Part shown: piece by piece, positions 2,553-64,000 of the stretch
Layout: every line of letters starts with the position of its first letter
Numbering within the stretch: the first letter of the stretch is position 1
Source of the DNA: Frigoriglobus tundricola
Lineage (GTDB): Bacteria > Planctomycetota > Planctomycetia > Gemmatales > Gemmataceae
DNA: 64,000 nt
Reading direction: 5' to 3'
Assembly (NCBI RefSeq): GCF_013128195.2
Contig: NZ_CP053452.2
Coordinates: 3,658,001 to 3,722,000 of the forward strand
Translations under genes and position numbers: made by a program
The notes under the pieces: generated by a model
The model's database searches: none
What the model was told of the DNA's origin: nothing
The model's input: only the letters and a program-made list of their open reading frames with translations

Positions 2553-2554
2553 GA

Positions 2555-2586: not shown

Positions 2587-2603
2587 CCGTGAGGGAATTC
2601 GGA

Positions 2604-23006: not shown

Positions 23007-23106
23007 TGCGACCTACACACGATGAGTTGAGATGGAAGCGGAAAGCTGGGGCGGACCGGCGGGTCCGCCCCAGACGCCAGTGTGCCCGGCGAGACACGGG
23101 GCGGCC

Positions 23107-35171: not shown

Positions 35172-35970
35172 TCACTCCTTACCCATCAGCCAGTCTACGA
35201 CCCAACACCCGCGCACGTGTGGTTGGCTCGCATCGCGGCAGTGGCTCAGGACGTCGTCGTTGTCGCAGCCGGCGTCCTGAAGGGCGTCCGCCAGGATCGG
35301 CATCGCGGAGAAGTCGCGCGACACGTACATCTGCGAAGCGAGAACGAGAGCGGTGTGGGTACGCCATTCCGGGTTGAAGCCTACAGGGCGGAACGGGTTG
35401 CCGAAGATGTCGCAAATGAGACGGACTTGATCGGCTTCCTCGGTTCGTAGTGCGGATGCAAACTCCGCTAAACCTCGGACTGCGGCTTCGTCTCTGCGTA
35501 TGGCAACTTCGCCCAGCCACATCCTCGGCCTCCACGGGGCAGAGATCCGTTCCAGATCGGGATAACTTACTTCGGGCGAGGGCGTCATACGCGATAGCAT
35601 CGCTGGCGCGGTCGGCGAAATCCGGCCATCGGCCCCGGCCCACGCACTCCAAAGCGCCGGCTGCGGCATGAAGCGCGTAAAGCCTCGCTTCGCCGGGGTG
35701 ACAGATTGAAGCGCCAGTGTCAATCGCACCCCTTACCGCGTGGTACAATATGGTCCGAAGATCGCGTTCGCCCTCGGGCTTCTCGGCTACGTTTTCCAAG
35801 GCGACGACGGCCGCGCGACAGTCTTTCATGTCCTCGCCACTAAACAGATGCTGAATGCGTTGGCAGCAAGAGAGTGCAAACAGCCGTATCTTCCGCCCAT
35901 CTGCTCCGTCGCATACAGCTTTCAGCATCAAAAGTGGGTCGGTAGCTACCAGCCATTCCTCTTCAGTCAT
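35172..35970 (-). pseudogene. MTExEW/CWVVD paralogous family member, frameshifted
   Basis: ATG at 35970 starts MTEEEWLVATDPLLMLKAV, then GRKIRLFALSCCQRIQHL, the N-terminal signature of a family with three members in this window (46674, 49091). Near 35580 the frame breaks: the first frame runs into arginine/serine nonsense, while the other frame continues through EVSYPDLERISAPW to ICDIFGNPFRPVGF, RDFSAMPILADALQDAGC and HVRGCWVVDWLMGKE. A single-base indel explains this. With the indel repaired the protein would be about 265 aa. The family is abundant in Gemmata-type planctomycetes and of unknown function. A U32-peptidase fragment lies directly upstream on the same strand (36033-36150). Confidence 0.8.
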
Positions 35971-36032
35971 CGGTCGTCCCCGGAAACTGTCCAGCATGAC
36001 CGATCCGCCCCATGCGCAAGCCGTAGCCATTT

Positions 36033-36150
36033 CGGCGTCTCGCGGAGCAGATCGACTCGGAATGTGCTGAGCCGAGTTCTTGCATCCGGGCGACGTACTC
36101 GGCACCGTTGAACATTATGTTCCGGCCGGTGTCAGGAAGGACCGGGACGT
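36033..36150 (-). pseudogene. Degenerate U32 peptidase C-terminal fragment (d)
   Basis: On the minus strand, segments DVPVLPDTG, then FNGAEYVARMQELG, then FRVDLLRETP in another frame align with the U32 fragment at 57373-57768. They carry a 13-bp deletion and frame changes. It lacks both the beginning and the C-terminal end. It directly precedes the frameshifted MTEEEW gene. Confidence 0.65.
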
Positions 36151-36218
36151 CGGTCCATCGGGGTCATGCCGTTCGACCATGCCTGTCGCGTACGTGCGCC
36201 CAAAGCGGGGGCCAGTAA

Positions 36219-41660: not shown

Positions 41661-41950
41661 TCAGATGCGTTGGAGCGTGCCCCGCGTCACACCAAGCTGA
41701 TTCAGCGCCCGCAGTTGCCGCCACGCTTCGCGGCCGCCGTCGCGCCCGGCGGTGATGCGGGCGTAGCGGTCCAAGAGCGGCCCGACCTGTGCCGGCGTTT
41801 CGCGGAGCAGATCGACGCGGAACGCGCGCAGCCCGAGTTCGGACATCCGGCCGACGTACTCGGCGCCGCTCTGAGGTACGCTGTTGAACACCGTGTTCCG
41901 GCACCCGGTATCCGGAAGGACCGGGAAGTTGGCCCCCACGCGGTCCCGCC
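41661..41950 (-). pseudogene. U32 peptidase C-terminal fragment (b)
   Basis: About 96 codons ending in a stop at 41661: RDRVGANFPVLPDTGCRNTV, FNSVPQSGAEYVGRMSELG, FRVDLLRETPAQVGPLLDRY, WRQLRALNQLGVTRGTL. This is the C-terminal part of the U32 collagenase-like peptidase family. Homology starts abruptly at 41950, two bases after the DUF1501 stop at 41953-41955. There is no start region, so it is a fragment. The reading frame is intact. Confidence 0.8.
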
Positions 41951-45992: not shown

Positions 45993-46155
45993 GAGTGTGC
46001 CGCGAGTGACACCGAGTTGGTTGAGTGCGCGGAGCTGTCGCCACGTCTCGCGGCCGGCGTCGCGGCCGGCGATCACGCGGGCGTAGCGGTCCAAGAGCGG
46101 CCCGACCTGTGCGGGCGTCTCGCGCAGCAGATCGACGCGGAACGTGCGCGGCCCC
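45993..46155 (-). pseudogene. U32 peptidase C-terminal fragment (c)
   Basis: 54 codons on the minus strand: FRVDLLRETPAQVGPLLDRY, GRETWRQLRALNQLGVTRGT. Homology stops sharply at both ends (46155 and 45993). The usual stop after TRGTL is missing. It lies 74 bp upstream of the DUF1549 gene start and may have replaced part of its promoter region. Confidence 0.8.
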
Positions 46156-46289
46156 ATCGACCCGGCTCAAATTTCTGAGCCGCCCGAAGCGCTACGGTGT
46201 TTCTGTTTCCATCTTGTGGCGCGAATACATTCGTCGCGCGGAGAAGGGCGTGGGTACGATACGTGGTGCCCACCCGTTCGGAGCCGACG

Positions 46290-46673: not shown

Positions 46674-47100
46674 TCACTCCTTGCCCAGCACCAAATCGAC
46701 CACCCAACATCCGCGAACGTGTGGCCCCGACCCGCGGCAGTGGTCGAGGATCGAGGCGCTGTCGCACCCGGTGTCCTGAAGGGCGTCGGCCAGAATGGGC
46801 ATCGCGGAGAAGTCGCGGGAGTCGTACATCTGCGAAGCGAGCGTGAGGGCGGTGCCGGTGCGCCACTCGGGGGAGAAGACGGCGGGACGGAACGGGTTGC
46901 CCACGAGGCAGCAGAGGAGTTGGACTTGCACAGCGGGAGTGGCTGCCCTGACGGTCCAGTTCCAGCCCCCATCCACCCCCGGCGACTTGTGACCGCTGAG
47001 GCAAGCCCCTGCAAAGGCTGCAAGTGCAGCCTTCCATTCCTTCGCGTCGAGTGTCCTCAACATCCTGTTCGGGTCGGCACACGCGAGCCATTCCGGTTCG
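46674..47100 (-). pseudogene. MTEPEW/CWVVD family gene, 3' exon, split by group II intron
   Basis: The 427-nt 3' exon of a gene whose first five bases (ATGAC) are at 57254-57250. Joined, the frame encodes 143 aa: MTEPEWLACADPNRML at the start, then LLCCLVGNPFRPAVFSPEW, SRDFSAMPILADALQDTGCD and HVRGCWVVDLVLGKE at the end. It belongs to the same family as 35172-35970 and 49091-49807, but is shorter in the middle. The exon junction was deduced from the intron ends (GTGCG...CCTACCTTAC) and the paralogue at 49091, whose ATGACCGAAGCGGAATGG matches. Expression would need splicing of a 10.1-kb interrupted intron, so the gene is probably silent. Confidence 0.9.
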
Positions 47101-47194
47101 GTAAGGTAGGAGCCGAGCGCCTTGCCTGTCTGGTCTGGGTGTCTCACGACAATACCTCCCGGCAGTTCGTGCAGGTTTCTCGACTCCCCCCTCC

Positions 47195-47228
47195 GAACCG
47201 TGCGTGCAACTTTCACTGCACACGGCTC
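47195..47228 (-). ncRNA. Group II intron domain V
   Basis: Minus-strand sequence GAGCCGTGTGCAGTGAAAGT followed by TGCACGCACGGTTC: the 34-nt catalytic hairpin with GNRA-type GAAA tetraloop, the dinucleotide bulge and closing GAGC/GGUUC. It is the most conserved ribozyme element and appears intact. The stop codon of the intron protein (47213-47215) lies inside it. Domain VI and the 3' splice site follow down to 47101. Confidence 0.93.
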
Positions 47229-47545
47229 TCCGCCTGTCGGTCCAGCTCGGTCTTCTTGTCATGGCACGCTGCGCATAACGTCTCGGTATTCTCCAAGAAG
47301 TTCGCGTTGATGGCTCGCTTGTACCGCCGCACCGGACGCTTGTGATCGACTTCGGCTGTGTCCGACGTAACCGGTGTGCCGCACCAGCAGCAACGGTAAC
47401 CGTCCCGCTCAAGTGCGGCATATCGGATGTCCGACCAGCCGGGTCTATTTTCGGCTCCGGTCCATGAGTGACTCTCGGGGAGTTCTTCCCGTTCGAGTGC
47501 CGTCAGGGTCGTGTATGGGTTTGGTTTCAGGTAGCGTTCCCTGTA
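47213..47545 (-). pseudogene. Group II intron protein, C-terminal segment with HNH endonuclease
   Basis: 111 codons including the stop, displaced from the rest of the protein by the IS66 at 47554. The segment begins YRERYLKPNPYTTL and contains the HNH domain: CCWCGTPVTSDTAEVDHKRP with the zinc cysteines and EVDH histidine, then NANFLENTETLCAACHDKKT with the second cysteine pair. Joined through the CTTCAGGG duplication to 49876-49929 it reads IRHGSFPSLKYRERYLKPN without a gap. The HNH nuclease would cut the bottom strand of the target DNA during retrohoming. Confidence 0.9.
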
Positions 47546-47610
47546 CTTCAGGGGTACTTGATTAGCGCGTCGTTCGGACTGCTCGACGCCCCGGTCACTA
47601 CGATGTCGTC

Positions 47611-48987
47611 ATGGCCGAACCCGCGTGTCCTGGCTGTCGGGATCTCCTCCAGCGTGTCGCCGAACTCGAAGCCCAGGTCGCCGAGTTGACCCGGCGGCTC
47701 GACGAGGCAGTGCGCGCCGGCAAGCGACAGGCCGCCCCGTTCCGCAAGGGTCCGCCCAAGCCCGACCCGAAGACACCCGGTCGCAAGTCGGGCGACGCCC
47801 ACGGCAAGCACGGGCGCCGCCCGCCCCCGCCTCACGATCAGGTTGCGGAGTGCCACGAGGCGCACCTCCCCGACTCCTGTCCGCACTGCCGGGGCCGGCT
47901 GGTCGAGACCGGCACGGCGGAGCAGTTCCAGACCGAGATCCCACGCACCCCGCTGCTCCGCAAGTTCCGCGTCCACATCGGTCACTGCGAGTCGTGCGGG
48001 AAGCGGACCCAGGGCCGGCATCCGCTCCAGACGTCCGACGCCCTTGGCGCGGCTGCCAGCCAGATCGGCCCTGACGCCCAGGCCGCGGCCGCGGTCCTGC
48101 ACACCCAGATGGGCCTGTCGCACGGCAAGGTCGCGTCGGTGTTCCGGACCCTGTTCGGCATCACCCTGACCCGCGGGGCCAGCGCCCAGATCGACCTCCG
48201 CACAGCGTCGCGACTGGAACCCGACTACCAACTGATCCTCGACGAGGTGCGGTCGTCCGAGCAGATCGCGGCCGACGAGACGGGGTGGCGGATCGGAGGG
48301 CATCCCGCCTGGCTCCATGCGTGGGTCGGTGACCGGGCCACCGCCTACGGTATCGACTCCCAACGCAGTGCCGCCGTCCTGGAGCGGGTGATCGGGGCGG
48401 ACTGGTCCGGCATCCTGAGCCACGACGGGTTCGCCTCGTACGACCGGTTCGAGGCGGCGATCCACCAGCAGTGCCTGGCCCACGTGCTCCGCCGCGCGCG
48501 GGAGTTGCTGGAGCGCGCCACCCGCGGGGCCGTGCGGTTCCCACGGCAGGTGATTGCGCTGCTCACCGAGGCGATCCACTGGCGGAACGGGTATGTGCCG
48601 GGGACGTGGACCGACGACCAACTCGACGCGCACCGGGGGCAGTTCGACGACCGCCTGCTGGAGTTGGTGACGCGACCGCGGGCGGTGCCGGAGTACGCGA
48701 CCCTGGCGAGGCACCTGTGGAACCACTTCGAGCAGTGGTTCGCGTTCGTGTTCGACCCGCGGATCGAGCCGACGAACTGGAAGGCCGAGCAGGCGATCCG
48801 CCCGGCGGTGGTAAATCGGAAGGTGTGGGGCGGCAACCGGACCGTCACGGGCGCGCGAGCGCAGGGCGTGTTGATGTCCGTGTTCGAGACGTGCCGCCGC
48901 CAGACGCTCTCGGTCGTGGATCACGTCAGCCGGACGTTGCGCTGGTTCGGTAACCGGCTCCTGCCGCGCCCGCTGCTGTTAGGGTGA
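47611..48987 (+). CDS. IS66-family transposase (TnpC type) of the passenger element
   Basis: 458 aa, ATG at 47611. N-terminal coiled coil (LLQRVAELEAQVAELTRRLD), proline-rich basic linker, zinc-binding CPHC near 92 and CESCGKRTQG near 126. DDE blocks are IAADETGWRIGGHPAWLHAW, ILSHDGFASYDRFEAAIHQQ and PRIEPTNWKAEQAIRPAVVN. It is only distantly related to the other three IS66 transposases in the window. Intact; likely able to move the element together with its passenger. Confidence 0.92.
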   Translation: MAEPACPGCRDLLQRVAELEAQVAELTRRLDEAVRAGKRQAAPFRKGPPKPDPKTPGRKSGDAHGKHGRRPPPPHDQVAECHEAHLPDSCPHCRGRLVETGTAEQFQTEIPRTPLLRKFRVHIGHCESCGKRTQGRHPLQTSDALGAAASQIGPDAQAAAAVLHTQMGLSHGKVASVFRTLFGITLTRGASAQIDLRTASRLEPDYQLILDEVRSSEQIAADETGWRIGGHPAWLHAWVGDRATAYGIDSQRSAAVLERVIGADWSGILSHDGFASYDRFEAAIHQQCLAHVLRRARELLERATRGAVRFPRQVIALLTEAIHWRNGYVPGTWTDDQLDAHRGQFDDRLLELVTRPRAVPEYATLARHLWNHFEQWFAFVFDPRIEPTNWKAEQAIRPAVVNRKVWGGNRTVTGARAQGVLMSVFETCRRQTLSVVDHVSRTLRWFGNRLLPRPLLLG

Positions 48988-49090
48988 TGAACGACTGCCG
49001 GAAAAGGAGGTCGGTCGGGGTGAGACCACCGGAGAAAGAATCCGATGAACGCCGGGGTTACTGTGGAAGGGAATGCCCGAGGGGTGACCG

Positions 49091-49807
49091 ATGACCGAAG
49101 CGGAATGGGAGACGTGCGTTGAACCACGCCAGATGTTAAGGTTCCTCGGTGATGGGGCGAGAGCGCGGAAGCTCCGACTGTTTGCTTGTTCTTGCTGCCG
49201 TCGCGTGTGGCCGCTTCTCACTGATGCGCGGAGTCGCACTGCGGTCGAAGTCGCTGAGCGCTACGCGGACGACCTCGCAACGGACCAAGAGCGGGAGGCT
49301 GCGCGTACCGCGACCATCGAACTCGACTGGCAGATTACGCGGGTGGATGGAGAGCGCGATTCAGCGCGCGAGATGAGCAACTGCGCTTCGATGTCGGCGG
49401 CGGATGATGATCGAGCATTTCTCCCACGCGAGAGTGACGAGGACGACTATCGAGCGGCTGAAGACAGTTCGCAGTGTGCAGCCCAGGCAACAGTTTACAA
49501 GCGGCTCAACAAGAAGTCCGAGCGAGCAGCCAGAGGCAAAGAGTTGGCAGCGCAGACGGGACTCATCCGCGACATCTTCGGGAACCCCTTCCGCCCGGTC
49601 GCCTTCTCTCCGTCGTGGCGGACTGACACCGCCGTTGCCCTCGCGCGACAGATGTACGAGTCACGCGACTTCGGCGCGATGCCGATCCTCGCCGACGCGC
49701 TACAGGACGCGGGCTGCGAGAACACGGACATTCTGGCCCACTGCCGCATCCCCGGCCTTCACGTCCGAGGATGCTGGGTGTTGGATGCCGTGCTCAACAA
49801 ACAGTGA
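49091..49807 (+). CDS. MTEAEW/CWVVD family protein, passenger of IS66 element
   Basis: 238 aa, ATG at 49091 preceded by GAGGGGTGACCG, nearly the same leader as the split paralogue (GAGGGCGACCG). N-terminal MTEAEWETCVEPRQMLRFLG, then RKLRLFACSCCRRVWPLLTD, a charged variable middle and the conserved C-terminal half: LIRDIFGNPFRPVAFSPSWR, SRDFGAMPILADALQDAGCE, HVRGCWVLDAVLNKQ. No signal peptide or membrane segment; probably cytoplasmic. This is the only undamaged member in the window. The family is common in Gemmata-type genomes and its function is unknown to me. It lies between transposase and right inverted repeat, so it moves with the element. Confidence 0.85.
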   Translation: MTEAEWETCVEPRQMLRFLGDGARARKLRLFACSCCRRVWPLLTDARSRTAVEVAERYADDLATDQEREAARTATIELDWQITRVDGERDSAREMSNCASMSAADDDRAFLPRESDEDDYRAAEDSSQCAAQATVYKRLNKKSERAARGKELAAQTGLIRDIFGNPFRPVAFSPSWRTDTAVALARQMYESRDFGAMPILADALQDAGCENTDILAHCRIPGLHVRGCWVLDAVLNKQ

Positions 49808-49875
49808 TCGGCGACTTAGCGGGTTAACGGCTTGGTGATCGAGGCGCGGCAGAGATCGACGCGCTAAACAAGTAC

Positions 49876-49929
49876 CTTCAGGGATGGGAAGCTCCCATGC
49901 CGAATGAGTCGGATCGATCCTACCCCCAG
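49876..49929 (-). pseudogene. Group II intron protein, middle segment
   Basis: 18 codons (LGVGSIRLIRHGSFPSLK) between the two insertions in the intron protein. The frame runs from NS at 55350 across the IS1634-like element, through these codons, and on into 47545. Without the join it hits a stop (49864) supplied by the IS66 inverted repeat. Confidence 0.88.
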
Positions 49930-49998
49930 GCTATTACAGGCGGTTCGCTCGTGTTTGGGGTGGTTATCGGGAATGGTGTTTGTGGGTAGTTTGTCGGG

Positions 49999-50597
49999 AT
50001 GACTCACATCAAACCCCGGTTGCTACGAGTGGAGGTCGTGGGCGACCTGCCCGTCCTCTGGGCGACCCTCCAACGTCTGAACCTCCCCGCCACACTCGAC
50101 TGCCATTACCCAGCACCGCTCCACTGGAAAGGTCCGCTCTCTCCCGGAGAGGTTCTGGCCGTCTGGTTACTCTTCATCGTCTCTCAAGGTGACCATTGCC
50201 TCAACCACGTCCAATCCTGGGTCGATCAGCACCAAACCACACTGGCCGCTCTCCTCGCTAAACCCGTCGTGCCCACCGACCTTCACGACGACCGCTTGGC
50301 CGACTGGCTGACACGACTCGGTGATGGTGACTCCTTCCACGCCGTCGAACGCGACCTCAATCAGCAGACCGTTCGGGTCTACGAACTGCCCACCGACCTT
50401 GTCCGCATCGACACCACCACCGCCAACTCCTACGCCGACGTCCTCTCCGAGCAGGGGCTCTTGCAGTTCGGTCACAGCAAGGACGATCCCAATCGACCCC
50501 AGTTCAAGATCGCCGCTGCGGTTCTCGACCCACTGGGCATGCCCCTGGCCACAGCCGTCGTGCCGGGCAACGCGACGGACGATCCGTTGTATGTGCC
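49999..50597 (+). pseudogene. IS1634-like transposase, N-terminal piece
   Basis: ATG 49999. A DUF4277-like N-terminal domain (LRVEVVGDLPVLWATLQRLN, GEVLAVWLLFIVSQGDHCLN) and the first DDE block VRIDTTTANSYADVL, then KIAAAVLDPLGMPLATAVVP and NATDDPLYV. It is cut by the IS66 at 50598 within the TATGTGCC duplication. Joined to 53039 it continues YVPAIVAVRQSLG in frame. Confidence 0.9.
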
Positions 50598-50665
50598 GTA
50601 CACACCCGGCCAAAGACGGTCGGTGAGCGACAGCCGGGATCGGCGGGGTTCGGTGTGGGATGGGC

Positions 50666-52222
50666 TTACGCGACGAGGAGTCGGGATTGTTGACGCTTCG
50701 CCCACACGTCGGGCAGAAGAGGTGCGAGTTGGTCCGCCGTCGGCTTCTCGCCCAACGCATGAAGGGCCGGAAGAACCTCACGCAGGTATGCCGTCGCATC
50801 GAGACCCAAGTGCCGACACGTGCCCACCACCGAGAAGTGAACCGCGGCGTGCGCACCGGCCTTCGCACTGCCCACGAACTTCCAATTGCTCCGACCCACG
50901 GCGATCAGCCGGAGCGTTCGCTCGCTCAGGTTATTATCGATCGAGAGTCGCCCGTCCTCGGTGTACCGGACGAACGCGGCCCAGTGATTCGCCACGTACC
51001 GGATCGCGGCCCCCAGGGCCGACTTGGGCAACGCCGTCCCGAGTGCCGCGTCGAGCCACGCCTTCAGGTCGTTCAGGATCGGGAGCGCCCTTGCTTGCCG
51101 CGTCGCGCGACGGGCGACGATGTGCTCCGGTGAGTCCGGCGCCGGAAGCGTGTGCTCGATGTGGTACAACCGGTTGATGCGTTCGACCGCCTTGGCCCCG
51201 GGGTCCCCGGCGCCGAGGAACTTGCGGCGCGCGTGGGACCAACAGGCGACGTGCTTGGCTCCGGCGGCGAACAGGCCGTTGTACTGTGCGAGGCAATCGG
51301 CATGCACGTGGCCCCGGAAGCCGCCTAAGAACTGGTCCGGTCCGCTCGCGGCGTCGTAACCGGTCGTGAAGTGGAACGCCGTGTACGGGGCCGTCGGATC
51401 TCCGATCCCCACCCAGAAGTGGCCGTGCGGCATCGTTCGCTCACCGGGCTGGGCGAACCGCGAGCGGGTGTCATCGGACCAGAGGACCGGACACGTGCGC
51501 ACCCGCTCGAGCATCAACTGGTACAGCGACGTCAGTAACACCGCGGACTGTTTCACCCAATCGCCCAAGGTACTCTCGGACACCGTCACCCCCGCGCGCC
51601 CGATCCGGGCGACTTGGCGGTGCAGCGGCAGGTGGTCGAGGAACTTCCCGACGAGAACCTCGGCCAACAAGCCCGGACCACACAGTCCCTTGTCGATCGG
51701 TCCGACGGTACTCGGCGTGGCGGTCCGGATCCGGTCCTCGGCCCGGACCGTCGGGGGGCACTGTTGGCACGCGTACGTCTTGCGGATCGTGCGCCGCACG
51801 AAGTACGGGGTCGGGTCGCAATCGAGTTGCTCGGTCTGGGTCTGGCCGATGCACACGCGGTCGCCACCACAGCCCGAGCAGCGGCGCTCGTCGGGGGTCA
51901 GATCGAGGACCGTGTCGCGGCGTTCGAGGTGCGCCGGGAGTGGCGAACGGCCGTGGTCGTGGCGCCGCTTCGCGGGTCCGTCGCCGGGGACCTTCGGTGG
52001 CTTCGGTGTGCGTTCGGACCGCCGGCCGAACCGGTGCGTCGTGGCCCGGTCCAACTTCGCCTTCAAGGCCGCGACCTCGGCACGCAGGTCGTCGATGGTC
52101 CGTTGGAACTGCTCGGCCTGGCGTTGGAGCTGCGTGCGGAGGTCGGCGTTTTCGGCCTGGAGGGCACGCACCATCCCTTGGAGGGTCAGCACGTCGGTCG
52201 GCAGCGGGGCGTCGGAGTCCAT
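50666..52222 (-). CDS. tnpC: IS66 transposase TnpC
   Basis: 518 aa, ATG at 52222. N-terminal leucine-zipper-like coiled coil (MVRALQAENADLRTQLQRQA, DLRAEVAALKAKLDRAT), zinc region CSGCGGDRVCIGQTQ and ACQQCPPTV. DDE blocks are CPVLWSDDTRSRFAQPGERT, HADCLAQYNGLFAAGAKHVA and LSIDNNLSERTLRLIAVGRS. C-terminal IS66 tail (HLGLDATAYLREVLPALHAL). Complete; starts 13 bp beyond the tnpB stop in the same transcript. Confidence 0.94.
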   Translation of the reverse strand: MDSDAPLPTDVLTLQGMVRALQAENADLRTQLQRQAEQFQRTIDDLRAEVAALKAKLDRATTHRFGRRSERTPKPPKVPGDGPAKRRHDHGRSPLPAHLERRDTVLDLTPDERRCSGCGGDRVCIGQTQTEQLDCDPTPYFVRRTIRKTYACQQCPPTVRAEDRIRTATPSTVGPIDKGLCGPGLLAEVLVGKFLDHLPLHRQVARIGRAGVTVSESTLGDWVKQSAVLLTSLYQLMLERVRTCPVLWSDDTRSRFAQPGERTMPHGHFWVGIGDPTAPYTAFHFTTGYDAASGPDQFLGGFRGHVHADCLAQYNGLFAAGAKHVACWSHARRKFLGAGDPGAKAVERINRLYHIEHTLPAPDSPEHIVARRATRQARALPILNDLKAWLDAALGTALPKSALGAAIRYVANHWAAFVRYTEDGRLSIDNNLSERTLRLIAVGRSNWKFVGSAKAGAHAAVHFSVVGTCRHLGLDATAYLREVLPALHALGEKPTADQLAPLLPDVWAKRQQSRLLVA

Positions 52223-52235
52223 GCCGAAAGATGGG

Positions 52236-52613
52236 TCAGGACGTGCGGGTGCGCAAGTCGGATTCGGACGCTTTCGGGCGACAATAACGGGTGAAACGTT
52301 TGGCCGACGAGTAGTCGATGCCGTCGAGGATCATGGCGAACTCGGTGGCGGTGAGTTCGAGTTTGCGGTCGGTCGGGGTGGGGAAGTGGTACCGCCCGCG
52401 CTCGAGTCGCTGGCACCACAAGCAGAGCCCGTGGCGGGTCCAGTACAGGGCCTTGAGCCGGTTGGCCGAGCGATTGGTGAAAATGAACAGATGCCCGCTC
52501 AAGGGATCGGCCTGAAGCGTGGATTGGACGTGGCGGTACAGGCCGTCGAACCCGAGGCGCAGATCGACGGCCCCGCCGTACCAGAGCTGGGTGGTGGGTG
52601 GAATGCTCAGCAC
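52236..52613 (-). CDS. tnpB: IS66 accessory protein TnpB
   Basis: 125 aa from GTG 52613 (VLSIPPTTQLWYGGAVDLRL), the natural start because TnpB proteins begin just before the conserved GxVDLRxGFDGL motif. LSGHLFIFTNRSANRLKALY and LCLWCQRLERGRYHFP are also conserved. It overlaps the tnpA stop by 7 bp, so it is translationally coupled. Its molecular role in IS66 transposition is not settled. Confidence 0.93.
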   Translation of the reverse strand: MLSIPPTTQLWYGGAVDLRLGFDGLYRHVQSTLQADPLSGHLFIFTNRSANRLKALYWTRHGLCLWCQRLERGRYHFPTPTDRKLELTATEFAMILDGIDYSSAKRFTRYCRPKASESDLRTRTS

Positions 52614-52954
52614 GGGCGCCCCTCCACCGCATGCACGAGGGCGGCGATGACCTCCGGTCGGGCATCGACCGGGAACCGCAGGACGGTTCCCGACGGGAAC
52701 ACCACCTCGATCGGCGGTCCGGCGGGCGACGGGGTCAGGCGGATGGGGACGAGCGTCGGAGTGACCGGTACGGGTGATGGGGCGTGGTCCGCGAGGGTTC
52801 GCCGCCACACATAAAAGGACGGCGGTGAGACGCCCTCGGCGGCACAGAACTGAGCGATCGTCTGCCCCGACCGGCGGAACCGTTCGAGTCGTTCGGCCCA
52901 CCGGCGACGGGTGGCGGCCGGGTCACGGCGAGAGGCAGCAGGGACAGCAGGCAC
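52607..52954 (-). CDS. tnpA: IS66 accessory protein TnpA (HTH)
   Basis: 115 aa, ATG at 52954. Helix-turn-helix region RRWAERLERFRRSGQTIAQF followed by CAAEGVSPPSFYVWRRTLAD, the typical IS66 TnpA/IS3-like DNA-binding domain; then a proline-rich linker and the short beta-rich IEVVFPSGTVLRFPVDARPE tail. First gene of the tnpABC operon of this element. Confidence 0.92.
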   Translation of the reverse strand: MPAVPAASRRDPAATRRRWAERLERFRRSGQTIAQFCAAEGVSPPSFYVWRRTLADHAPSPVPVTPTLVPIRLTPSPAGPPIEVVFPSGTVLRFPVDARPEVIAALVHAVEGRPC

Positions 52955-53030
52955 AGCGGCATCCTCCAGGGAAAACGGATGCCATCGAACTTACCTTACC
53001 TGTCAATGACGCCGTTCGCCGGTCGTGTAC

Positions 53031-53152
53031 TATGTGCCCGCCATCGTGGCCGTGCGACAGTCCCTCGGAGTGGGTGGTCGCACCTACGTGGGTGACTGCA
53101 AGATGGCAGCCCTGGCCACCCGAGCCTTCGTGGCTGCTGGCGGCGATTTCTA
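53031..53152 (+). pseudogene. IS1634-like transposase, middle piece
   Basis: The 122-bp segment (including the 8-bp duplication) between the nested IS66 and IS630 elements. In frame it reads YVPAIVAVRQSLGVGGRTYV, then GDCKMAALATRAFVAAGGDF, the second DDE block (V-GDCKMA). It ends at TA 53151-53152, the IS630 target. Removal of both ISs gives GGDFYLCPLSQ. Confidence 0.9.
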
Positions 53153-54317
53153 TTACCTCGGCAAGGAAGTTGCTCAAGGTGTAACATAAAAGGGGCCTCG
53201 TAGTGGCCCCGATCGGTCTCACCATCGTCCGCTGAGCGGCTGCGTCATGGCGATCACATTGCCGGATTCTCGTGGGCTGTCCGACGAAGTCCTGCAGGCG
53301 TTGCGCCTGCGCGCGTTGCACGGGATCGAGTCCGGGTTCTCGCAAGCCGATGTGGCCCGGTTGCTGGGTGTCGCGGGTGAAACCGTGTCGCGCTGGTGGA
53401 CGGCCTACACGGCGGGTGGGCTGCAGGCCCTGCCCCAGGAGCGCACCGGGCGACCGGTGGGAACCGGGCGCACCCTCTCCGACGAGCAAGGGGCCCACCT
53501 GCAACTACTGCTCGACACCAAGAGCCCGTCGGATCTGGGGATCGCCGCGCCCGTGTGGAACCGTCGCGCGGTTCGCGACCTGATCCTCAACGAGTACGGG
53601 CTCCGGGTGCCGATTCGCACCGTGGGGGAATACTTGCGGCGCTGGGGCTATACGGCCAAGAAGCCGTCCCGCCACGCCCGCAAGCAAGATCCCGACGAGG
53701 TGCGTGAGTGGCTCGAGCAGACGTATCCGGCCATTGAAAAGCTGGCTCGGGCGGAACGGGCCACCATGTTCTGGTGCGATGAGACCGGGACGGCCGCCGA
53801 CGCGTATCCCGGTTACGGGTACGCCCGCGAGGGCCAACGGGCGACGATCGAGGTTCCCGATCCGCACATCCGGATGAACATGGTCTCCGGGATCAGTAAC
53901 ACGGGCGATGTGCGGTTCCTGACGTATTCCGGCACGATGACGGCCGAGCGGTTCATCACGTTCCTGAAGCAGTTGCTGACGACCGTGCCGGGTACGATCT
54001 TCGTGATCGTGGACAACTTGCCCGCCCACGCCAAGGATGCGGTCGTCGCTTGGGTCCAACAGCATGAGGATCGGCTCGCCGTGTTTTATCTGCCCCGGTA
54101 CAGTCCCGAATTGAACCCCGACGAGTATCTCAACAACGACCTGAAGGGGCAGGTGCATGACGCCGGCTTGCCCGACACGAGCAAAACCCTGCGCTCGCGA
54201 ATCCAACGCTTCATGCACAAGCTCCTGATGCTACCCAAACATGTGATGAGCTACTTCCTCCATCCAAAAGTAAACTATTGCGCATCAGGTTAATGATAAA
54301 ATTATTTGCCGGGGTAA
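53153..54317 (+). mobile_element. IS630-family element 2
   Basis: 1165 bp between TA dinucleotides (53151-53152, 54318-54319). Inverted repeats TTACCTCGGCAA on the left and TTACCCCGGCAA inward from the right. It encodes a single-frame transposase different from that of IS630 element 1. Inserted in the IS1634-like transposase gene. Confidence 0.92.
53247..54293 (+). CDS. IS630-family transposase (single frame)
   Basis: 348 aa, ATG at 53247. N-terminal winged helix-turn-helix (IESGFSQADVARLLGVAGET, VSRWWTAYTAGGLQALPQER), second HTH near 115 (LNEYGLRVPIRTVGEYLRRW). DDE domain: MFWCDETGTAADAYPGYGYA, IFVIVDNLPAHAKDAVVAW, LPRYSPELNPDEYLNNDLKG, the DxE...DNxxxH...SPELNPxE pattern of the family. No frameshift needed. 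Complete and probably functional. Confidence 0.93.
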   Translation: MAITLPDSRGLSDEVLQALRLRALHGIESGFSQADVARLLGVAGETVSRWWTAYTAGGLQALPQERTGRPVGTGRTLSDEQGAHLQLLLDTKSPSDLGIAAPVWNRRAVRDLILNEYGLRVPIRTVGEYLRRWGYTAKKPSRHARKQDPDEVREWLEQTYPAIEKLARAERATMFWCDETGTAADAYPGYGYAREGQRATIEVPDPHIRMNMVSGISNTGDVRFLTYSGTMTAERFITFLKQLLTTVPGTIFVIVDNLPAHAKDAVVAWVQQHEDRLAVFYLPRYSPELNPDEYLNNDLKGQVHDAGLPDTSKTLRSRIQRFMHKLLMLPKHVMSYFLHPKVNYCASG

Positions 54318-54319
54318 TA

Positions 54320-55349
54320 CCTGTGCCCGCTGTCGCAAGCTCAACTCAGTTTGGCCCAGCGGCACGAGTTGTTGCTCCCGGTATGGTTGGGCACTCAGGT
54401 GTTGCAGAAGGTGTCACGCCCTGGTCCCCCAGGCCAGCCTGACGAACGGGTGGCCGAGGGGTTCTACGTGGATGTGGAGTTGACCGCCGAGGTCGAGTCC
54501 AAGGAGGTGCGTTGGACGGAACGCCGCTGGCTGGTCCGTTCGAAAGCCTACGCGGTGGCCCAACAGGAGGCATTGGAGCGTCGTCTCTCGACAGCCGAGA
54601 GGTGTTTGCGTGAGTTGCCCACACGCAAGCGGGGCAAGAAGCAGTTATTTCACACGGAACTGATGGCGGCAGCGGAAGTCATCATGAAGCGTGAACGAGT
54701 GGAGGACTTGCTCAGTTGCACGGCCCAAGCGGTAATGACGAGGCAGAAGAAGCGAGGGTATGGCGGTCGCCCACCAACCGAGAAGACGGACGTGTCGTTC
54801 GAGATCGAGGTGCGCCGCGACGACAAGGCGATCGAGGAGAAGAAACGCGAGATGGGCTGGCAGGTGTACGGCACCAATGGGGTGGGGATGAGCCTGACGC
54901 AGGTGGTATGGGCGTACCGGGGCCAGTATCGGATTGAGAACGACTGGTCGCGTCTGAAGGGACGGCCTCTGGGTCTGACGCCGTTGTATTTGCAGGACGA
55001 AGTTCGGATCGAGGGTTTGGTGTATTTGTTGAGTGTGGCGTTGCGCGTGTTGACGTTGTTGGACTGGCAGGTGCGTGAGGGTTTGAGGAAGGATGGGTCG
55101 AAGTTGGAAGGTGTGTATGCGGGTCAAGCGGGCCGCAAGACGGCGCGTCCGAGTGCGGAGTTGTTGCTGGGTGTGCTGAAGACGATCAGCCTGAGTGTCA
55201 TCGAGGTCAACGGCCAGACGCACACGCTGTTATCGCCGTTGACCAAGGTGCAAAAGCGACTCCTGAAACTCTGGGAGCTACCAACAGACCTGTATGGAAA
55301 GCTCACGCGAGGATTCCCAAAACCACCTCCGAAGACGAGCGAACCGTAA
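54320..55349 (+). pseudogene. IS1634-like transposase, C-terminal piece
   Basis: Continues after the IS630 as CPLSQAQLSLAQRHELLLP, through a beta-strand insertion region (about 100 residues), to the last DDE block VWAYRGQYRIENDWSRLKGR with PLYLQDEVRIEGLVYLLSVA, and ends KPPPKTSEP at TAA 55347-55349. With the N-terminal and middle pieces it makes a 580-aa transposase without frameshift, so the ISs hit an intact gene. Confidence 0.9.
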
Positions 55350-56645
55350 GCTATTACCCCGTTGGTAGAACTGTTTCAGGCACATTGGCATTGGCAGCCT
55401 GTGTTTGCGACACAGCCAGCGCGCCATGAGCCAGAAGGTTTCGTGTTCCAGGTTGTGAAACTGGGTACTCGCCTTGCTGGTGTACTGGTAGTACCGGCAC
55501 CATCCCTCAATGGCCTTGTTGAGCGCCACGATTTTCGCCACGATCGCATCTTTGTGGGTTGTAGGATTCGTCGCCGCCTTGATGAGATCAAGGTGACGGT
55601 CGTATCCCTTCTGCGAGATGAGGGTCTTCACCCCCATTTTCGTAGCCCCCATCGAACGCCGTAACGTAAAACCGAGGAAGTCGAACCCGTCGTTGAGGTG
55701 CGTGACTTTCGTTTTCTCCATCGAGAGCGTTAGTCGTAGCGAGTCCCGCAGGAAGTCGTGAACGTCCTGTCGGATTGCCACGGCGTCGGCTCGTCCACCA
55801 TTCGAGAGGATAACAAAGTCATCGGCGTACCTGACGTAGGTATAATTTGCCCCACCACTCTGCCGCTGCTTTCGCTTGTGTTGTTTGGAAAGAGCGGTCG
55901 TGCGTTCCGTCATGAACTTATCAAGCTCATGGAGGTACACATTTGCGAGTAGGGGACTCACGACCCCGCCTTGCGGGGTGCCGAGCGTTGTGTCCTTGAA
56001 CAGCTTCCGTTCCATGACCCCAGCCCGAAGGAATGCCCAGATCAAGTCGAGGAGTTCCCCATCCGCGATCCGATGCCCCAAGAGCTTCATCAACTTCTTG
56101 TGGTTGATCGTGTCGAAGTACGAGGAAATATCCCCTTCCACGACCCAGAACGCCTTCTTCCGCTCGGTGGAGCTATACGCGAGACAGCGGATAGCGTCCT
56201 TCGTGCAGCGGTTGGGGCGGAACCCGAACGAATACTGGCTGAAGTCCGCCTCGTAGATCGGTTCCAAGACCATTCGGATCGCTTCCTGAACAATCCGATC
56301 CCGAATGGAGGGGATGCCCAACGGGCGCATGTTCCCATTCGATTTCGGAATGTACACCCGCCTCACGGGGTACGGCGCAAACGTTCCCGCCAGCAGGTCT
56401 TCTCGGAGTTGCCGAAGGTTGCCCTCCAGGTTCTCGTCGAAGTCCTTCATGTTGATGCCGTCGCACCCGGCCGTCCTACTCCCGGAGTTGCGAGCGACAT
56501 GGTCATGGGCCAGCCGGAGCCAGTCCGCGTGACAAACAAGGGCATACAGGTCGTCGAACCGGTGGCTCTTCGACCGTTCCGCCTTCACACTGAGCAGCCT
56601 CTGCATTTCGCCGATATTCATGGGTACATTCCCCCACGTTGGCAC
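55350..56645 (-). pseudogene. ltrA: Group II intron protein, reverse transcriptase/maturase part
   Basis: 432 codons from ATG 56645 (a second ATG at 56621 is possible). RT blocks: GCDGINMKDFDENL, VRRVYIPKSNGNMRPLGIPS near 95-113, RIVQEAIRMVLEPIYEADFS, YSFGFRPNRCTKDAI, WVVEGDISSYFDTI (block A Asp), LGTPQGGVVSPLLANVYL, catalytic YADD at 273-276, and FDFLGFTLRR. The maturase (X) domain GWCRYYQYTSKASTQFHNLE follows. The chain is cut at NS (55350) by the IS1634-like element. Reconstructed with 49876-49929 and 47213-47545 it has 560 aa, normal for LtrA-type proteins. As it stands the C-terminus is read from antisense IS sequence. Confidence 0.92.
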
Positions 56646-57249
56646 TCGGTTACCTGTGCTTCGGCTTTCCCAACAAGCTGTGGCCCTTCGCCATGTGGAC
56701 GGCTTTCCCGCCCTCGGACTACTATGGCCACTCCGACGCTACCCCCGTTTCTCTCCCCGACTGCTGGGGACATCTGTTTCCGGGTAGCCTCCCACGTTCA
56801 CGTCGGTGGACTCTGCGGAGCGATTTAGGCGGCGGTTATCAAGACGACCCAATCCCCTCTTCGGGGAATCCCGGCTGTCGATGGCGTAGATCAGGTTGAG
56901 CCATCGCTGGCCCCCGACGGCAAGATACCGTCGGGGGCCGACGCAGCCGAGATGACCGTCCTGCTGCGTCACAGCCGACACCGGATCATGCAGGATTCGG
57001 TGTGGGGGCGATTTCCCGTAGGTCGAAACCCGCTTCGTTTGAACTCGCCTTGTCGCTCCTCCGTCAAGCCGGGCCTCTTGGCCGCCTGCATCGGGCCTCA
57101 CCCGTACCTTTCAGGGGCAGCTCTTTCACCACCGGAAGGCATCTCCGGCAGCTACGCCCCAACGACGCACCGATTGCCTGTACAACCGGTGGGACTACGA
57201 GGCGTCATGCCTCATTCGTCCATTCCACTTGACGCGCCTCGTGGCGCAC
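56646..57249 (-). ncRNA. Group II intron ribozyme, domains I-IV (5' part)
   Basis: 604 nt from the 5' splice site (GTGCGCCAC at 57249) to the intron protein start. No protein frame is supported. The stem GGCCCCCGACGG/CCGTCGGGGGCC with a 7-nt loop (56909-56939) is the strongest local structure. Exon-binding sites and individual subdomains were not assigned. Confidence 0.75.
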
Positions 57250-57768: not shown

Positions 57769-57918
57769 TAAGTGGATCTCGACAGAATGAGGCATGTCTT
57801 TCATCGAGTCGCGAGTCCAGAAAGATGGAGCAATCGGCTCTCACGATTGGCACTGATTTTCATCAATCGAGCAGCAGACGACTGTGTCGCGCGGTTCGGT
57901 CGGGGCTCGAAGCGAACC

Positions 57919-57946
57919 CAGCCCGGTCGCTTCCGCGACCGGGCTG
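57919..57946 (-). terminator. Hairpin after the 57992 gene
   Basis: Perfect 12-bp stem CAGCCCGGTCGC with loop TTCC, 46 bp beyond the stop of the gene at 57992 on the minus strand. Probable terminator without a U-tract. Confidence 0.6.
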
Positions 57947-57991
57947 AGCGTCGGTGGCGTCACCGTCCGAGCGGGTCGGTCCGGCGTTTCC

Positions 57992-60175
57992 TCACCACGA
58001 AACAGTAATGTTGGCCCCGAGCAAGTCGAAGTAGAAATCGTCGTCGTTGAATCCGAGCGACAGCGAGCCCAGATCCTTGACCCAGAGCGTGCCGCTGCCG
58101 CTGACATCTACGTCGCCAGAGGAATCGACCGAGAAATTTAGGTCGGCGTTGAACGAGATGACCGACGTGCTCGCTGACAGCGCGGCGTCGAAGTAGAAAC
58201 CGGTGGTCGGGTTCCACCCGATGCTGAACGTCTCGATCAGTTGGAAACCGGGGATGCCGTGTCCGATGCTTTCATTGATCTGATCGGAATAAGTCAGGTT
58301 GAACGCTCCGTTCGACAGGTTGACCGAACCGTACAGGTACTCTTGCGTCAGGCCGAGTAAGCCCTGCATGTTCATGTTGACGGTCGCCGTCATGGTCGCG
58401 CTGTCGGCGTAGATGAACAGTGAGTCGCTGCTGAACCCGGCGAACGAGCTGGACTCGGCGATCGCGTAGAACTTCCAACTGGCGATCCCCTGGTCGTTCG
58501 CGCCGGTCGTGATGGAGCCACCGACCTCGGCCGTCAGTTTCGGGGCGAGGTTGTCCAGGACCGTGCCCGCGAACGGGTCGACGGTCTGGACGTCGAACGT
58601 TACCGTGCGGCCGCCGTCCGAGTTCGGCTTGTAAAACGCGCTCCCCGTGCCGGCGTTCACGTTCAGGCTGATCCCGTACGCGGCGGTACTCATCGACAGC
58701 GTACCGTTCAGCCCGACCTCGATGTCGTTCATCGCCCCCGGCAACTCATGGGCCAGGTTGTTCAACTGCTGGAATAGCGCTGCGGACTGGTTGCCGTCCT
58801 GTGTGCCCGTCAGCTGATCGAACAGGGTCCGGATCGCGGCCTGGTCCGAACTCAACATGGAGAGGAACTTCCCGTCGTGGTTGGCGTCCAGTCCCAGCAC
58901 CAGGCTGCCCGAGGCGGCCAGCGGGAGGTCGCCCAGGTTGATCCCGTTCGCGGACAGGTACACGTTCCCGTAGATGTCGGGGTCCGGGTACCCGCTGGGG
59001 AGGGCGTTCGGGGTGTACGGAATGGCCCCGTGGAGGGACACGGCCCCGGAGAAGGTACCGATCTGACTGTCTCCGCCCTGGACGTAGATGGCCGGGTCCG
59101 CCGGGTCGAACACGATCGCCCCGCTCGCCCCGTCGGTGGAGGCACTGATATTGCTGCCGAACGAGACCGATTCGCCGGTGTTGAACGACGCGTACAGGTA
59201 CGGGACGTCCGCGAGGAGCGGCATCCCCAGGGCCTGAAGGTCGGACCCGGACCCGAGCTCGATTCCCCATTGAACTCCGGACCCGCTGAACGACAGGCTG
59301 GTCATATTCAGTAGGTTGCCGAGCGTGTTGTTCCCCTGGGACAGGTTGTTCAGCGGGCTAAATCCCCCGAGTGAGATCCCGGCGTACTCGCCGACCTGAC
59401 TGGTGCCGAAGTTCGCCTCCGTCGTCACTCCGAACTGCCTGCCCATCGGGATCGGAATCGCCACCTGCTTGCCGTTGATTACTAGCCCGGTCTCCAGTTG
59501 GACTGTCCCCGAGGCAGTAAAGTAGTTGGTGTACTCACCGTAGCCCACGGCGGTCTGGGTGTCCGTCCAGTGCCCGACGAGTTGGAACCCGCCCCCGGTC
59601 GGGCCGGCGATAGTCAGGACGGTGTCCGTGGAGTTCAGGTACGCGGTGATCCCGCCGTTAACCGACTGGTTCATCTCCGACGGATACTTGTAAGCGTTTT
59701 GGGCCAGACCGTCGGTGATCGTCTGCCCCGGGGCGACGGTGTCGAACAGTTGGCTGCCGGAGTACATGGAGACGTCAATAGGCGTATCGTTGTTGAGCGA
59801 GTACGAGGAGGCGGGGTTGGCCCCAGTTTTGTAGACGATGCTCGTGATGCTGTTCAGGGAAACGCCGCCGCTGGAATCCCCGCCCTGGACGTTCTCTCGC
59901 CCCGCGTAGTTGTCCGCGACGTAAACGTCTTTATGGAGCGACAGGCTGTTCGGTATGTACTCGGCGACGACCGCGGCGGCGGTGTTGGCGGTGTTGGCCG
60001 TAATGGTCAGAACCCCGTTGCTGAAGGCGGCGGTGACCGACGGCAGGCAGCGGTCGTCCAGGGACTCGAGTCCGAGCCGGGTGGGCCGGTCGGGCCAGGT
60101 GGCTCGGGGGCGCGTGACAATCGGACGGCGGGAGCGGCCCGAGAACAGCTTGCGGGCCCAGTTTTTCAGCATCAT
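57992..60175 (-). CDS. Large secreted protein with LEPR-XLL-type N-terminal motif
   Basis: 727 aa from ATG 60175 (MMLKNWARKLFSGRSRR). Residues 36-45 (LESLDDRCLP) match the LEPR-XLL/LExLExRxLLS motif that marks many planctomycete surface proteins. The rest is serine-, glycine- and asparagine-rich beta-strand sequence with few Lys/Arg (ANTANTAAAVVAEYIPN, GGISLGGFSPLNN-type turns, ITTGANDQGIASWKFYAI, GSGTLWVKDLGSLSLGFNDD), without a recognised catalytic domain. Composition indicates a large extracellular or cell-surface protein. It lies next to an ECF sigma gene (60274) on the same strand and is separated from it by 98 bp, so it could be a target of that sigma factor. Confidence 0.8.
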   Translation of the reverse strand: MMLKNWARKLFSGRSRRPIVTRPRATWPDRPTRLGLESLDDRCLPSVTAAFSNGVLTITANTANTAAAVVAEYIPNSLSLHKDVYVADNYAGRENVQGGDSSGGVSLNSITSIVYKTGANPASSYSLNNDTPIDVSMYSGSQLFDTVAPGQTITDGLAQNAYKYPSEMNQSVNGGITAYLNSTDTVLTIAGPTGGGFQLVGHWTDTQTAVGYGEYTNYFTASGTVQLETGLVINGKQVAIPIPMGRQFGVTTEANFGTSQVGEYAGISLGGFSPLNNLSQGNNTLGNLLNMTSLSFSGSGVQWGIELGSGSDLQALGMPLLADVPYLYASFNTGESVSFGSNISASTDGASGAIVFDPADPAIYVQGGDSQIGTFSGAVSLHGAIPYTPNALPSGYPDPDIYGNVYLSANGINLGDLPLAASGSLVLGLDANHDGKFLSMLSSDQAAIRTLFDQLTGTQDGNQSAALFQQLNNLAHELPGAMNDIEVGLNGTLSMSTAAYGISLNVNAGTGSAFYKPNSDGGRTVTFDVQTVDPFAGTVLDNLAPKLTAEVGGSITTGANDQGIASWKFYAIAESSSFAGFSSDSLFIYADSATMTATVNMNMQGLLGLTQEYLYGSVNLSNGAFNLTYSDQINESIGHGIPGFQLIETFSIGWNPTTGFYFDAALSASTSVISFNADLNFSVDSSGDVDVSGSGTLWVKDLGSLSLGFNDDDFYFDLLGANITVSW

Positions 60176-60273
60176 GTTCGTTCTCCGCGTGGGCCCTTGA
60201 AAGGGCCGGATTTGTGCCCGGGGCGTCCCCGGTGCAGAAAGAACGCGGAGGTGTGACAGGCAAATTTTCGGCG

Positions 60274-60867: not shown

Positions 60868-60951
60868 CGGTGGGCTCCGCAAGACGTGTCACAAGCGAGC
60901 GTTCTGTGTTATAGTGCGGTCCCGTTTGGCCGCCTACGCCGGAGCCCGCGC

Positions 60952-63591: not shown

Positions 63592-63700
63592 CTCGGCCGC
63601 AGGTACCTTGATCTCCCGCGTCGACCGCTGCCGAGGTCTGGACCGCCAGATGGCGTGATATGACTACCCCAGATCAGCAGTATTGTTTATTGCGCACATA

Positions 63701-64000
63701 TTAGATCAATTGGAGTGTGCCTCTCGTCACTCCGAGTTGGTTGAGCGCACGGAGCTGCCTCCACGTCTCGCGGCCGTCGTCCAATCCGGCAATGACGCGC
63801 AAGTAGCACGTTAGGAGCCGCCCGATTTGGTCCGGTGTCTCTCGCAAGAGATCGATGCGAAAGCGACTAACGCCTAACTCTCGCATTCGGCCGACGTACT
63901 CGGCGCCACTCTGGGGAACCGAGTTGTAGACGGTGTTCCGGCATCCGGTGTCGGCGTGGACCGGGAACAGCACGCCCGTACGGTCCTTCAGTTCGACCCT
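63701..64000 (-). pseudogene. U32 peptidase C-terminal sequence (e), continuing past the window
   Basis: Stop at 63701; 100 codons open to the window end: RVELKDRTGVLFPVHADTGC, NSVPQSGAEYVGRMRELG, FRIDLLRETPDQIGRLLTCY, WRQLRALNQLGVTRGTL. It is more diverged from the other four fragments than they are from each other, and it may be the 3' end of a complete U32 peptidase gene or another fragment; the sequence beyond the window decides. Labelled as a pseudogene only because the other copies are fragments. Confidence 0.6.

What the first reader, a model, noticed from the sequence alone, without database searches (positions are those of the whole stretch)
35172..36150. Recurring pair: U32 fragment directly upstream of a MTExEW-family gene
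At 36150-35172 and at 57768-57250 the order on the minus strand is the same: U32 fragment, short gap, MTExEW gene. Two independent occurrences suggest that the two segments travel or are duplicated as one unit, or that the U32 fragment marks a preferred integration place.
Basis: seen in the sequence. Interest (0 to 1): 0.5.

Follow-up and report, generated by a model that had tools for sequence, protein, structure and literature searches.

The report
Gene fragments left by integrating islands
The repeated gene fragments here are most likely tail ends of one bacterial gene, pushed aside when mobile DNA islands inserted at one exact spot in that gene and brought a replacement tail; the gene beside them is probably an old neighbour left behind.

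Summary
The window lies in a 9.86-Mb planctomycete-like genome. Site A is a real "U32 piece, short gap, MTExEW gene". Site B has the U32 fragment, the shared leader and only the first five bases (ATGAC) of an MTExEW gene: a group II intron starts there, and the gene resumes 10 kb away at 47100, because the intron was itself split by an IS1634 and an IS66. U32 sequence was found only in one 30-kb stretch of this genome, so the pair is not a dispersed mobile unit.

U32 fragments begin at the same codon (about 787 of 919) in seven genomes. Large serine recombinase genes sit at the junction in five of them, with a remnant in an eighth genome. In G010 the intact gene is 94% identical to G008 just before that codon and 76% after it, while the displaced fragment is 94% identical. 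Islands therefore most likely integrate site-specifically in U32 and supply a new 3' end; the fragments are displaced native ends. An MTExEW start follows the U32 3' end by 9-22 nt in four of 16 same-genus relatives with U32, so it is probably a native neighbour (inferred). The window's genome has no such recombinase today. New member of a known kind; interest 0.45.

The parts
63701..64000 (-). 3' end of the intact U32 gene (919 codons, continues to window-equivalent 66460); chimaeric, with a foreign last ~131 codons
   Evidence: Open frame; Peptidase_U32 and DUF3656 on its first 820 codons; identity break at codon ~787
57778..63700 (.). Presumed island remnant between chimaeric U32 and displaced 3' end (protein kinase gene 60886-63591 +, 803-codon frame 57992-60403 -); no recombinase
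   Evidence: Position between the two U32 parts; Pkinase match; no Recombinase-domain match in the genome
57373..57777 (-). Displaced U32 3' end (codons 786-919), boundary at the shared codon
   Evidence: 91.6% identical to G008 U32 but 74.8% to the intact U32 of the same genome
57250..57290 (-). Leader hairpin and first five bases (ATGAC) of MTExEW gene B
   Evidence: Sequence; same 15-base leader motif at 35990-36004; hairpin z -2.6
55350..57249 (-). Group II intron, 5' part, with reverse transcriptase (frame 55278-56645, its end formed by the IS1634)
   Evidence: TIGR04416 362.7 bits, RVT_1 and GIIM; IS edge at the 8-bp repeat 55350
49884..49929 (-). Group II intron, middle scrap between the IS1634 and IS66 insertions
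   Evidence: Bounded by the two 8-bp target repeats
47101..47545 (-). Group II intron, 3' part: HNH-like tail of the reverse transcriptase (HNH by eye, recalled motif) and domains V-VI
   Evidence: RF00029, 64 bits, 47101-47230; frame
46674..47100 (-). 3' exon of MTExEW gene B
   Evidence: EPEWLACADP... open to the stop
49930..55357 (+). IS1634-family element inside the intron (transposase parts 49999-51177 and 54351-55349), itself interrupted by other DNA including a DDE transposase gene 53247-54293
   Evidence: two parts of NF033559; DDE_3, HTH; 8-bp repeat GTAATAGC on the minus strand; terminal inverted repeats
47554..49875 (+). IS66 element with an MTExEW passenger gene (49091-49807); 12 copies in the genome
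   Evidence: Transposase 47611-48987; 12 of 12 copies DNA-identical from 47585 to 49875, and inverted repeats; CTTCAGGG at 47546 and 49876
45993..46157 (-). U32 piece (codons 862-916), 5' boundary lost
41663..41949 (-). U32 piece (codons 825-919), directly after a DUF1501 gene
36033..36181 (-). Degenerate U32 piece (site A), directly after a MacB/FtsX-like permease gene
35172..35970 (-). MTExEW gene A (MTEEEW), frameshifted

Best explanation
The U32 gene of this genus is an integration site (attB) for islands that carry a large serine recombinase. Recombination occurs at codons ~787-788. The island carries its own U32 3' end beside its attachment site, so the target gene is rebuilt as a chimaera (native 5' part, foreign last ~131 codons), and the native 3' end is pushed to the island's far side as a fragment. 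Site B (57.4 kb) is such a displaced end. The 46.0-, 41.7- and 36.1-kb pieces are probably older, trimmed ends from earlier rounds or from local duplication. The MTExEW gene beside the fragment is most likely the native downstream neighbour of U32, displaced with it; this step is inferred. At site B that gene was later interrupted after ATGAC by a group II intron, itself split by IS1634 and IS66. Shown by sequence: the common boundary, recombinases at it in relatives, the chimaera pattern, the gene order in relatives and the nesting. Inferred: the reaction itself, its past action in this genome, and the origin of the second pair.
For: Fragments start at codons 786-789 in six same-genus genomes (G000, G001, G003, G006, G009, G010) and in G045 of another genus, with unrelated DNA before the boundary. 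Where both parts are on one contig (G000, G009, G010, G045) the intact U32 lies upstream on the same strand, 5.9, 17, 39 and 1.8 kb away. Large serine recombinase genes lie within about 150 bp of the junction in G001, G003, G006, G009 and G010; three of these were tested and have Resolvase and Recombinase domains. Chance expectation for 38 such genes within 300 bp of 24 U32 places in 141.8 Mb is about 0.004 (counts). Intact genes of G000, G010 and G009 fall 6.3-8.2 points below the expected identity after the boundary, their fragments 0.2-2.5 above. In the tree of the last 131 codons the intact ends of G000, G001 and G009 group together (with G005 and G007) and those of G010 and G045 group together, apart from six of the seven fragments. 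MTExEW starts 9-22 nt after U32 in G002, G006, G011 and G013.
Against: The window's genome has no such recombinase (0 matches), so the window's case rests on relatives. Its boundary DNA does not visibly match the others'. Three of its four pieces lack the boundary. Its 5' part and its fragment have different nearest references (G018, G008), and G001's mean residuals hardly differ (-2.2 and -1.3). One reference, G007, is itself 5.6 low and may be occupied. G003 and G006 show no intact U32 3' end in their assemblies, and G045's insert has no recombinase match. U32-adjacent MTExEW genes do not form one clade: 4 changes for 6 rows against 5.8 in shuffles, 9 of 500 as low, in a poorly resolved tree. 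In G011 the MTExEW is seen by its start only and gives no tblastn match. Only 4 of 16 same-genus relatives with U32 have the close pair.
Confidence: 0.8

Rival explanations
1. The U32 fragment and the MTExEW gene form one mobile or duplicating unit that spreads together.
For: Two copies of the order in 21 kb with a shared leader; G013 also has two such pairs, 15 kb apart.
Against: No U32 copy outside this stretch, against about 70 MTExEW loci. The leader also precedes MTExEW genes without U32. Most relatives' U32 3' ends have no close MTExEW. No target duplication or inverted repeat around the pair was seen (looked at the two sites only).
Confidence: 0.08
2. U32 was tandemly duplicated in an ancestor; the copies decayed to 3' pieces as other genes and insertion sequences came in.
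For: All pieces are on one strand downstream of the intact gene; three of four lack the common boundary.
Against: Does not explain the same start codon in seven genomes, the recombinases at it, or fragments that match relatives' genes better than the intact gene of the same genome. dN/dS of 0.21 between the 57.4- and 41.7-kb pieces suggests that they diverged largely while still in working genes.
Confidence: 0.1
3. The fragment is a working small gene, a free-standing cysteine-rich U32 tail.
For: No stop inside the fragment in 6 of 6 relatives with it; dN/dS 0.05-0.10 for four fragments against G008 U32 (57.4 kb, G003, G009, G010).
Against: Low dN/dS is expected if most divergence came before displacement. 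The upstream DNA differs in every species and the first codons vary. The window's other pieces are broken, and G013 and G015 keep only scraps.
Confidence: 0.05

Closest known systems
Large serine recombinase elements that share one conserved site inside a coding sequence (survey PMC10083194; passages seen)
   Same: Diverse recombinases of one family at one codon of one conserved gene, as described there for a prolyl isomerase gene.
   Different: The target is a U32 gene (not named in that paper's main text, 0 occurrences; supplements not seen) and the island restores the target with its own 3' end.
Prophage e14 / phage 21 at icd in E. coli, with the icdC remnant (recalled, not from a call)
   Same: The element supplies an alternative 3' end and the displaced native end remains as a remnant.
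   Different: As recalled, those use tyrosine recombinases and a shorter end; here the recombinases are serine-type and the end is about 131 codons.
IS66 elements with passenger genes
   Same: IS66 transposase, near-identical terminal repeats and an 8-bp target duplication.
   Different: The passenger is a member of the expanded MTExEW family; 12 identical copies in one genome.
Bacterial group II intron
   Same: Reverse transcriptase/maturase and Rfam domains V-VI.
   Different: Sits five bases into an MTExEW gene and is broken by two insertion sequences.

Membership tests
Large-serine-recombinase islands integrated at U32 (relatives) | A large serine recombinase gene at the junction | tested here: met
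   Five genomes (G001, G003, G006, G009, G010); domains shown for three; remnant in G015; none found in G045
Large-serine-recombinase islands integrated at U32 (relatives) | One fixed crossover point in the target | tested here: met
   Codons 786-789 in seven genomes
Large-serine-recombinase islands integrated at U32 (relatives) | Uninterrupted target in relatives | tested here: met
   Intact U32 with no displaced fragment found in G002, G008, G011, G014, G018 and others
Large-serine-recombinase islands integrated at U32 (relatives) | Target rebuilt with a foreign end, native end displaced | tested here: met
   Clear in G010 and G009, clear in mean for G000, weak in mean for G001; tree
Large-serine-recombinase islands integrated at U32 (relatives) | Recombinase joins attP to this attB | not testable with these tools
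   Needs a recombination assay
Large-serine-recombinase island in the window's own genome | Own recombinase gene | tested here: not met
   0 matches; filed as a scar of such an island, not as an active one
Mobile U32-MTExEW unit | Several dispersed copies with common ends | tested here: not met
   U32 found only in one 30-kb stretch
Group II intron | Intron reverse transcriptase and domains V-VI on one strand, with coding exons on both sides | tested here: met
   broken by insertions; splicing not testable
IS66 element | Transposase, terminal repeats, 8-bp duplication | tested here: met
DUF416-like fold (MTExEW proteins) | Same fold as DUF416 proteins | tested here: inconclusive
   Top three rows 3f7c, 2q9r, 7jtu_B at Z 11.9, 10.9, 10.3, next 5.7, but the tool warns of chance up to about Z 13 for helical folds; Foldseek E 0.5 or more; no DUF416 match by sequence at E <= 1 among 19 members

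The most novel reading that the evidence does not exclude
Serial island integration repeatedly swaps the conserved cysteine-rich tail of a U32 enzyme for divergent versions, so that a core gene's C-terminal part is exchanged horizontally by the islands, and the old tails stacked downstream with their neighbour are a record of past islands.
Probability: 0.3. Interest if true: 0.6.

Novelty: new member of a known kind. Interest (0 to 1): 0.45.

Why it matters
It points to a natural, defined integration site with several matching recombinases in a bacterial group with few genetic tools. It shows the conserved end of a core gene being replaced by mobile DNA in several species. It also explains a class of gene fragments that would otherwise be called random pseudogenes.

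Tried and rejected
MTExEW as the repeat-companion domain TIGR02996 (recalled): no NCBIfam or Pfam match at E <= 1 for P0005. Among 19 members in Pfam only single-member weak matches, including Imm5_like (E 0.05) and Imm5 (E 0.14).

Leader hairpin as a U32-linked signal: the site B hairpin is fairly stable (z -2.6), site A's stretch less so and folds otherwise (z -1.9). Similar leaders, by eye, stand before MTExEW genes elsewhere in the genome, so the leader goes with that gene family.

Intron homing to MTExEW starts in general: no close relative of this reverse transcriptase in the 19 genus genomes (best 39% identity outside the window's own copy), so one event only. The HNH tail piece gave no match at E <= 0.001 in 17 reverse-transcriptase loci, so that it belongs to the same intron rests on position, target repeats and frame.

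Single origin of U32-adjacent MTExEW genes: not shown.

Solved structures by sequence with the MTExEW profile: best is ribonuclease A at E 0.0064, judged chance. The recombinase has only distant phage relatives (best 34.8% identity over 72%).

Short U32 frames in G103, G098 and G047 lie at contig ends and were not counted as fragments.

Papers: no paper in the library held both 'large serine recombinase' and 'peptidase U32'. 'Gemmata, integrase, genomic island' gave 2 papers and 'Gemmata, group II intron' 10, none on this by title and abstract start. (0, 1, 32, 47 and 4 papers, at most 12 listed each) showed none on U32 as a target in the listings. Only PMC10083194 was opened, by term search. 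Nothing wider is claimed about what is in print. The organism was not identified by name; 'Gemmata-like' is my recall from gene content.

Full report
WHAT WAS CLAIMED. It suggested that the two travel as a unit or that U32 marks an integration place.

THE SEQUENCE. The window is G000:C1:3658001-3722000 of a 9.86-Mb genome in two contigs. Site A has a degenerate U32 stretch (36033-36181) and an MTExEW gene starting at 35970 (MTEEEW) whose conserved C-terminus is in another frame. Site B has an open U32 C-terminal frame (57373-57804) and a leader shared with site A, but only ATGAC of an MTExEW gene (57254-57250). A group II intron begins at 57249; its reverse transcriptase scores 362.7 bits against TIGR04416. 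Rfam's group II model ends at 47101, and the DNA from 47100 continues an MTExEW gene, open to its stop at 46674 (EPEWLACADP...). ATGAC plus this exon reads MTEPEW (by eye). The 10-kb gap holds an IS1634-family element in two transposase parts, with an 8-bp repeat at 49930 and 55350, and an IS66 with CTTCAGGG at 47546 and 49876. So site B is a U32 fragment before an MTExEW gene broken by an intron that was broken in turn.

COPY NUMBERS. The 143-aa U32 fragment matches four places in the whole genome, all between 41.7 and 64.1 kb of window numbering, plus the 36.1-kb remnant found by blastn. MTExEW gives 85 matches, merged to 70 loci. Twelve are 100% identical over the full length, and all 12 are DNA-identical from 47585 to 49875 in window numbering, that is across the IS66 transposase and its passenger. 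The chance of an MTExEW start within 500 bp downstream of a random point on the same strand is 0.0018; one of five U32 places passes outright, and site B only through the split gene. The pair is above chance, but it is one local cluster.

RELATIVES. Of 41 genomes (the window's and 40 relatives) 26 have a U32 match; most are single frames of about 830-900 codons. Of the 18 same-genus relatives 16 have U32. In G002, G011, G013 and G006 the U32 stop is followed 9, 13, 22 and 17 nt later by an MTExEW start on the same strand. In the first three the U32 is intact; in G006 it is a displaced fragment. G011's MTExEW is visible by its start only and gives no tblastn match. G007 and G009 have weak MTExEW-like matches further downstream, and G013 has a second, decayed pair 15 kb away. 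In the other loci no MTExEW follows closely. In G045 an MTExEW gene lies upstream of U32.

THE COMMON BOUNDARY. Against the 919-codon own U32 (Peptidase_U32 and DUF3656, tested on its first 820 codons), fragments in G000, G001, G003, G006, G009 and G010 start at codons 786-789 and run to the end. G045, of another genus, does the same. The DNA before the boundary is unrelated to U32 in each. Where an intact U32 is on the same contig it lies upstream on the same strand: G000 5.9 kb, G009 17 kb, G010 39 kb, G045 1.8 kb. G001 has its intact gene on another contig; G003 and G006 show no intact 3' end. G013 and G015 have U32 scraps 15 and 20 kb downstream of their genes.

THE RECOMBINASES. At the junction lie large serine recombinase genes: within 65-85 bp of the fragment in G003 (its N-terminal part in another frame), G006, G009 and G001 (cut by the contig end), and about 145 bp after the intact U32 in G010. 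Three were tested and have Resolvase and Recombinase domains. G015 has a recombinase remnant that abuts a U32 scrap. The 19 genus genomes hold 38 matches to this recombinase at E <= 1e-20, in 14 genomes. With 24 U32 places in these genomes about 0.004 would fall within 300 bp by chance; five intact or nearly intact ones do. The window's genome has none, and none was found at G045.

THE CHIMAERA TEST. With 11 genus references, identities just before (651-785) and after (789-919) the boundary were compared. G010: before 94.1% to G008 and the fragment 93.9% to G008, but the intact gene's own end at best 85.5%, to G016 (75.6% to G008). G009: 86.7% and 91.5% to G014; own end best 81.7% to G005. G001: 87.4% and 96.2% to G016; own end best 84.7% to G005. 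G000: before 88.1% to G018, fragment 91.6% to G008, own end best 81.7% to G005. Mean residuals from the reference fit are -8.2 (G000), -7.5 (G010), -6.3 (G009) and -2.2 (G001) for intact ends, and 0.2, 0.4, 2.5 and -1.3 for fragments; the fit's own residual spread is 4.2 per pair. References range from -5.6 (G007, perhaps itself occupied) to 3.2. In the 26-row tree of the last 131 codons the intact ends of G000, G001 and G009 group with G005 and G007 (96/97), and those of G010 and G045 group together (96/83); the second pair lies near G016 and G001's fragment, and G009's fragment lies beside the first group. Against the reading: G000's nearest references differ, and G001's means hardly do.

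MECHANISM. Shown by sequence: one boundary, recombinases at it, chimaeric genes, displaced ends. Inferred: the recombinase joins an island site to the U32 site at codons 787-788; the island brings a replacement 3' end, so the gene stays whole; the old end and its neighbour (in some species MTExEW) go to the far side. G009's insert carries tape-measure, sigma-factor, RusA-like and primase-like genes, and one gene in G010's insert has D5_N, so at least some islands look like phages or their satellites. In the window the 57.4-kb fragment keeps the boundary; the 46.0-, 41.7- and 36.1-kb pieces are trimmed. Pieces 57.4 and 41.7 differ with dN/dS 0.21 at dS 0.285, so much of their divergence probably arose in working genes. 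This suits serial displacement better than copying of a dead fragment, without proving it.

THE MTExEW FAMILY. It has a conserved start and C-terminal part, no confident Pfam match among 19 members, arrays of paralogues near 5.276 Mb and an IS66-borne form. A model (pLDDT 82.9) resembles two DUF416 structures and a chain of 7jtu, an entry titled as a type VI cytidine deaminase toxin (Z 11.9, 10.9, 10.3; next 5.7). I recall that the partner chain there is an immunity protein; this was not checked. An immunity-like role is a lead only: for helical folds the tool warns that such Z can be chance.

VERDICT. The best explanation is a recurrent integration site in U32 with displaced gene ends. It is a new member of a known kind of integration: PMC10083194 (passages) describes serine recombinases sharing one conserved coding site; the e14/icd parallel is recalled.

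Noticed in passing
47554-49875: IS66 element carrying an MTExEW passenger gene, 12 DNA-identical copies in the genome: a recent burst that spreads a gene of a family with about 70 loci.
   Followed up: partly
57249-47101: Group II intron five bases into an MTExEW gene, itself split by IS1634 (with further insertions inside) and IS66; both exons keep the MTExEW reading.
   Followed up: yes
2535-4126, 18882-20400, 24428-26019 and window-equivalent 66521-68112: A 1.6-kb repeat, three copies 100% identical and one 92%, probably another insertion sequence.
   Followed up: no
16735-18307 and 22588-24146: An 81% identical 1.6-kb direct repeat pair.
   Followed up: no
G000:C1:5275100-5278700 (L012-L014, L152): Tandem array of four MTExEW paralogues with similar leaders, beginning with an IS66-borne copy.
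   Followed up: partly
49091-49807 (protein P0005): Predicted MTExEW fold resembles DUF416 proteins and a chain of the toxin entry 7jtu (Z 10-12); single weak Imm5-type matches. A possible immunity-like family.
   Followed up: partly
L186 (G045), between intact U32 and fragment: Only 1.8 kb inserted at the same U32 codon, with an AT-rich 385-codon frame and no recombinase match: perhaps an island reduced to a remnant or moved by another's enzyme.
   Followed up: partly
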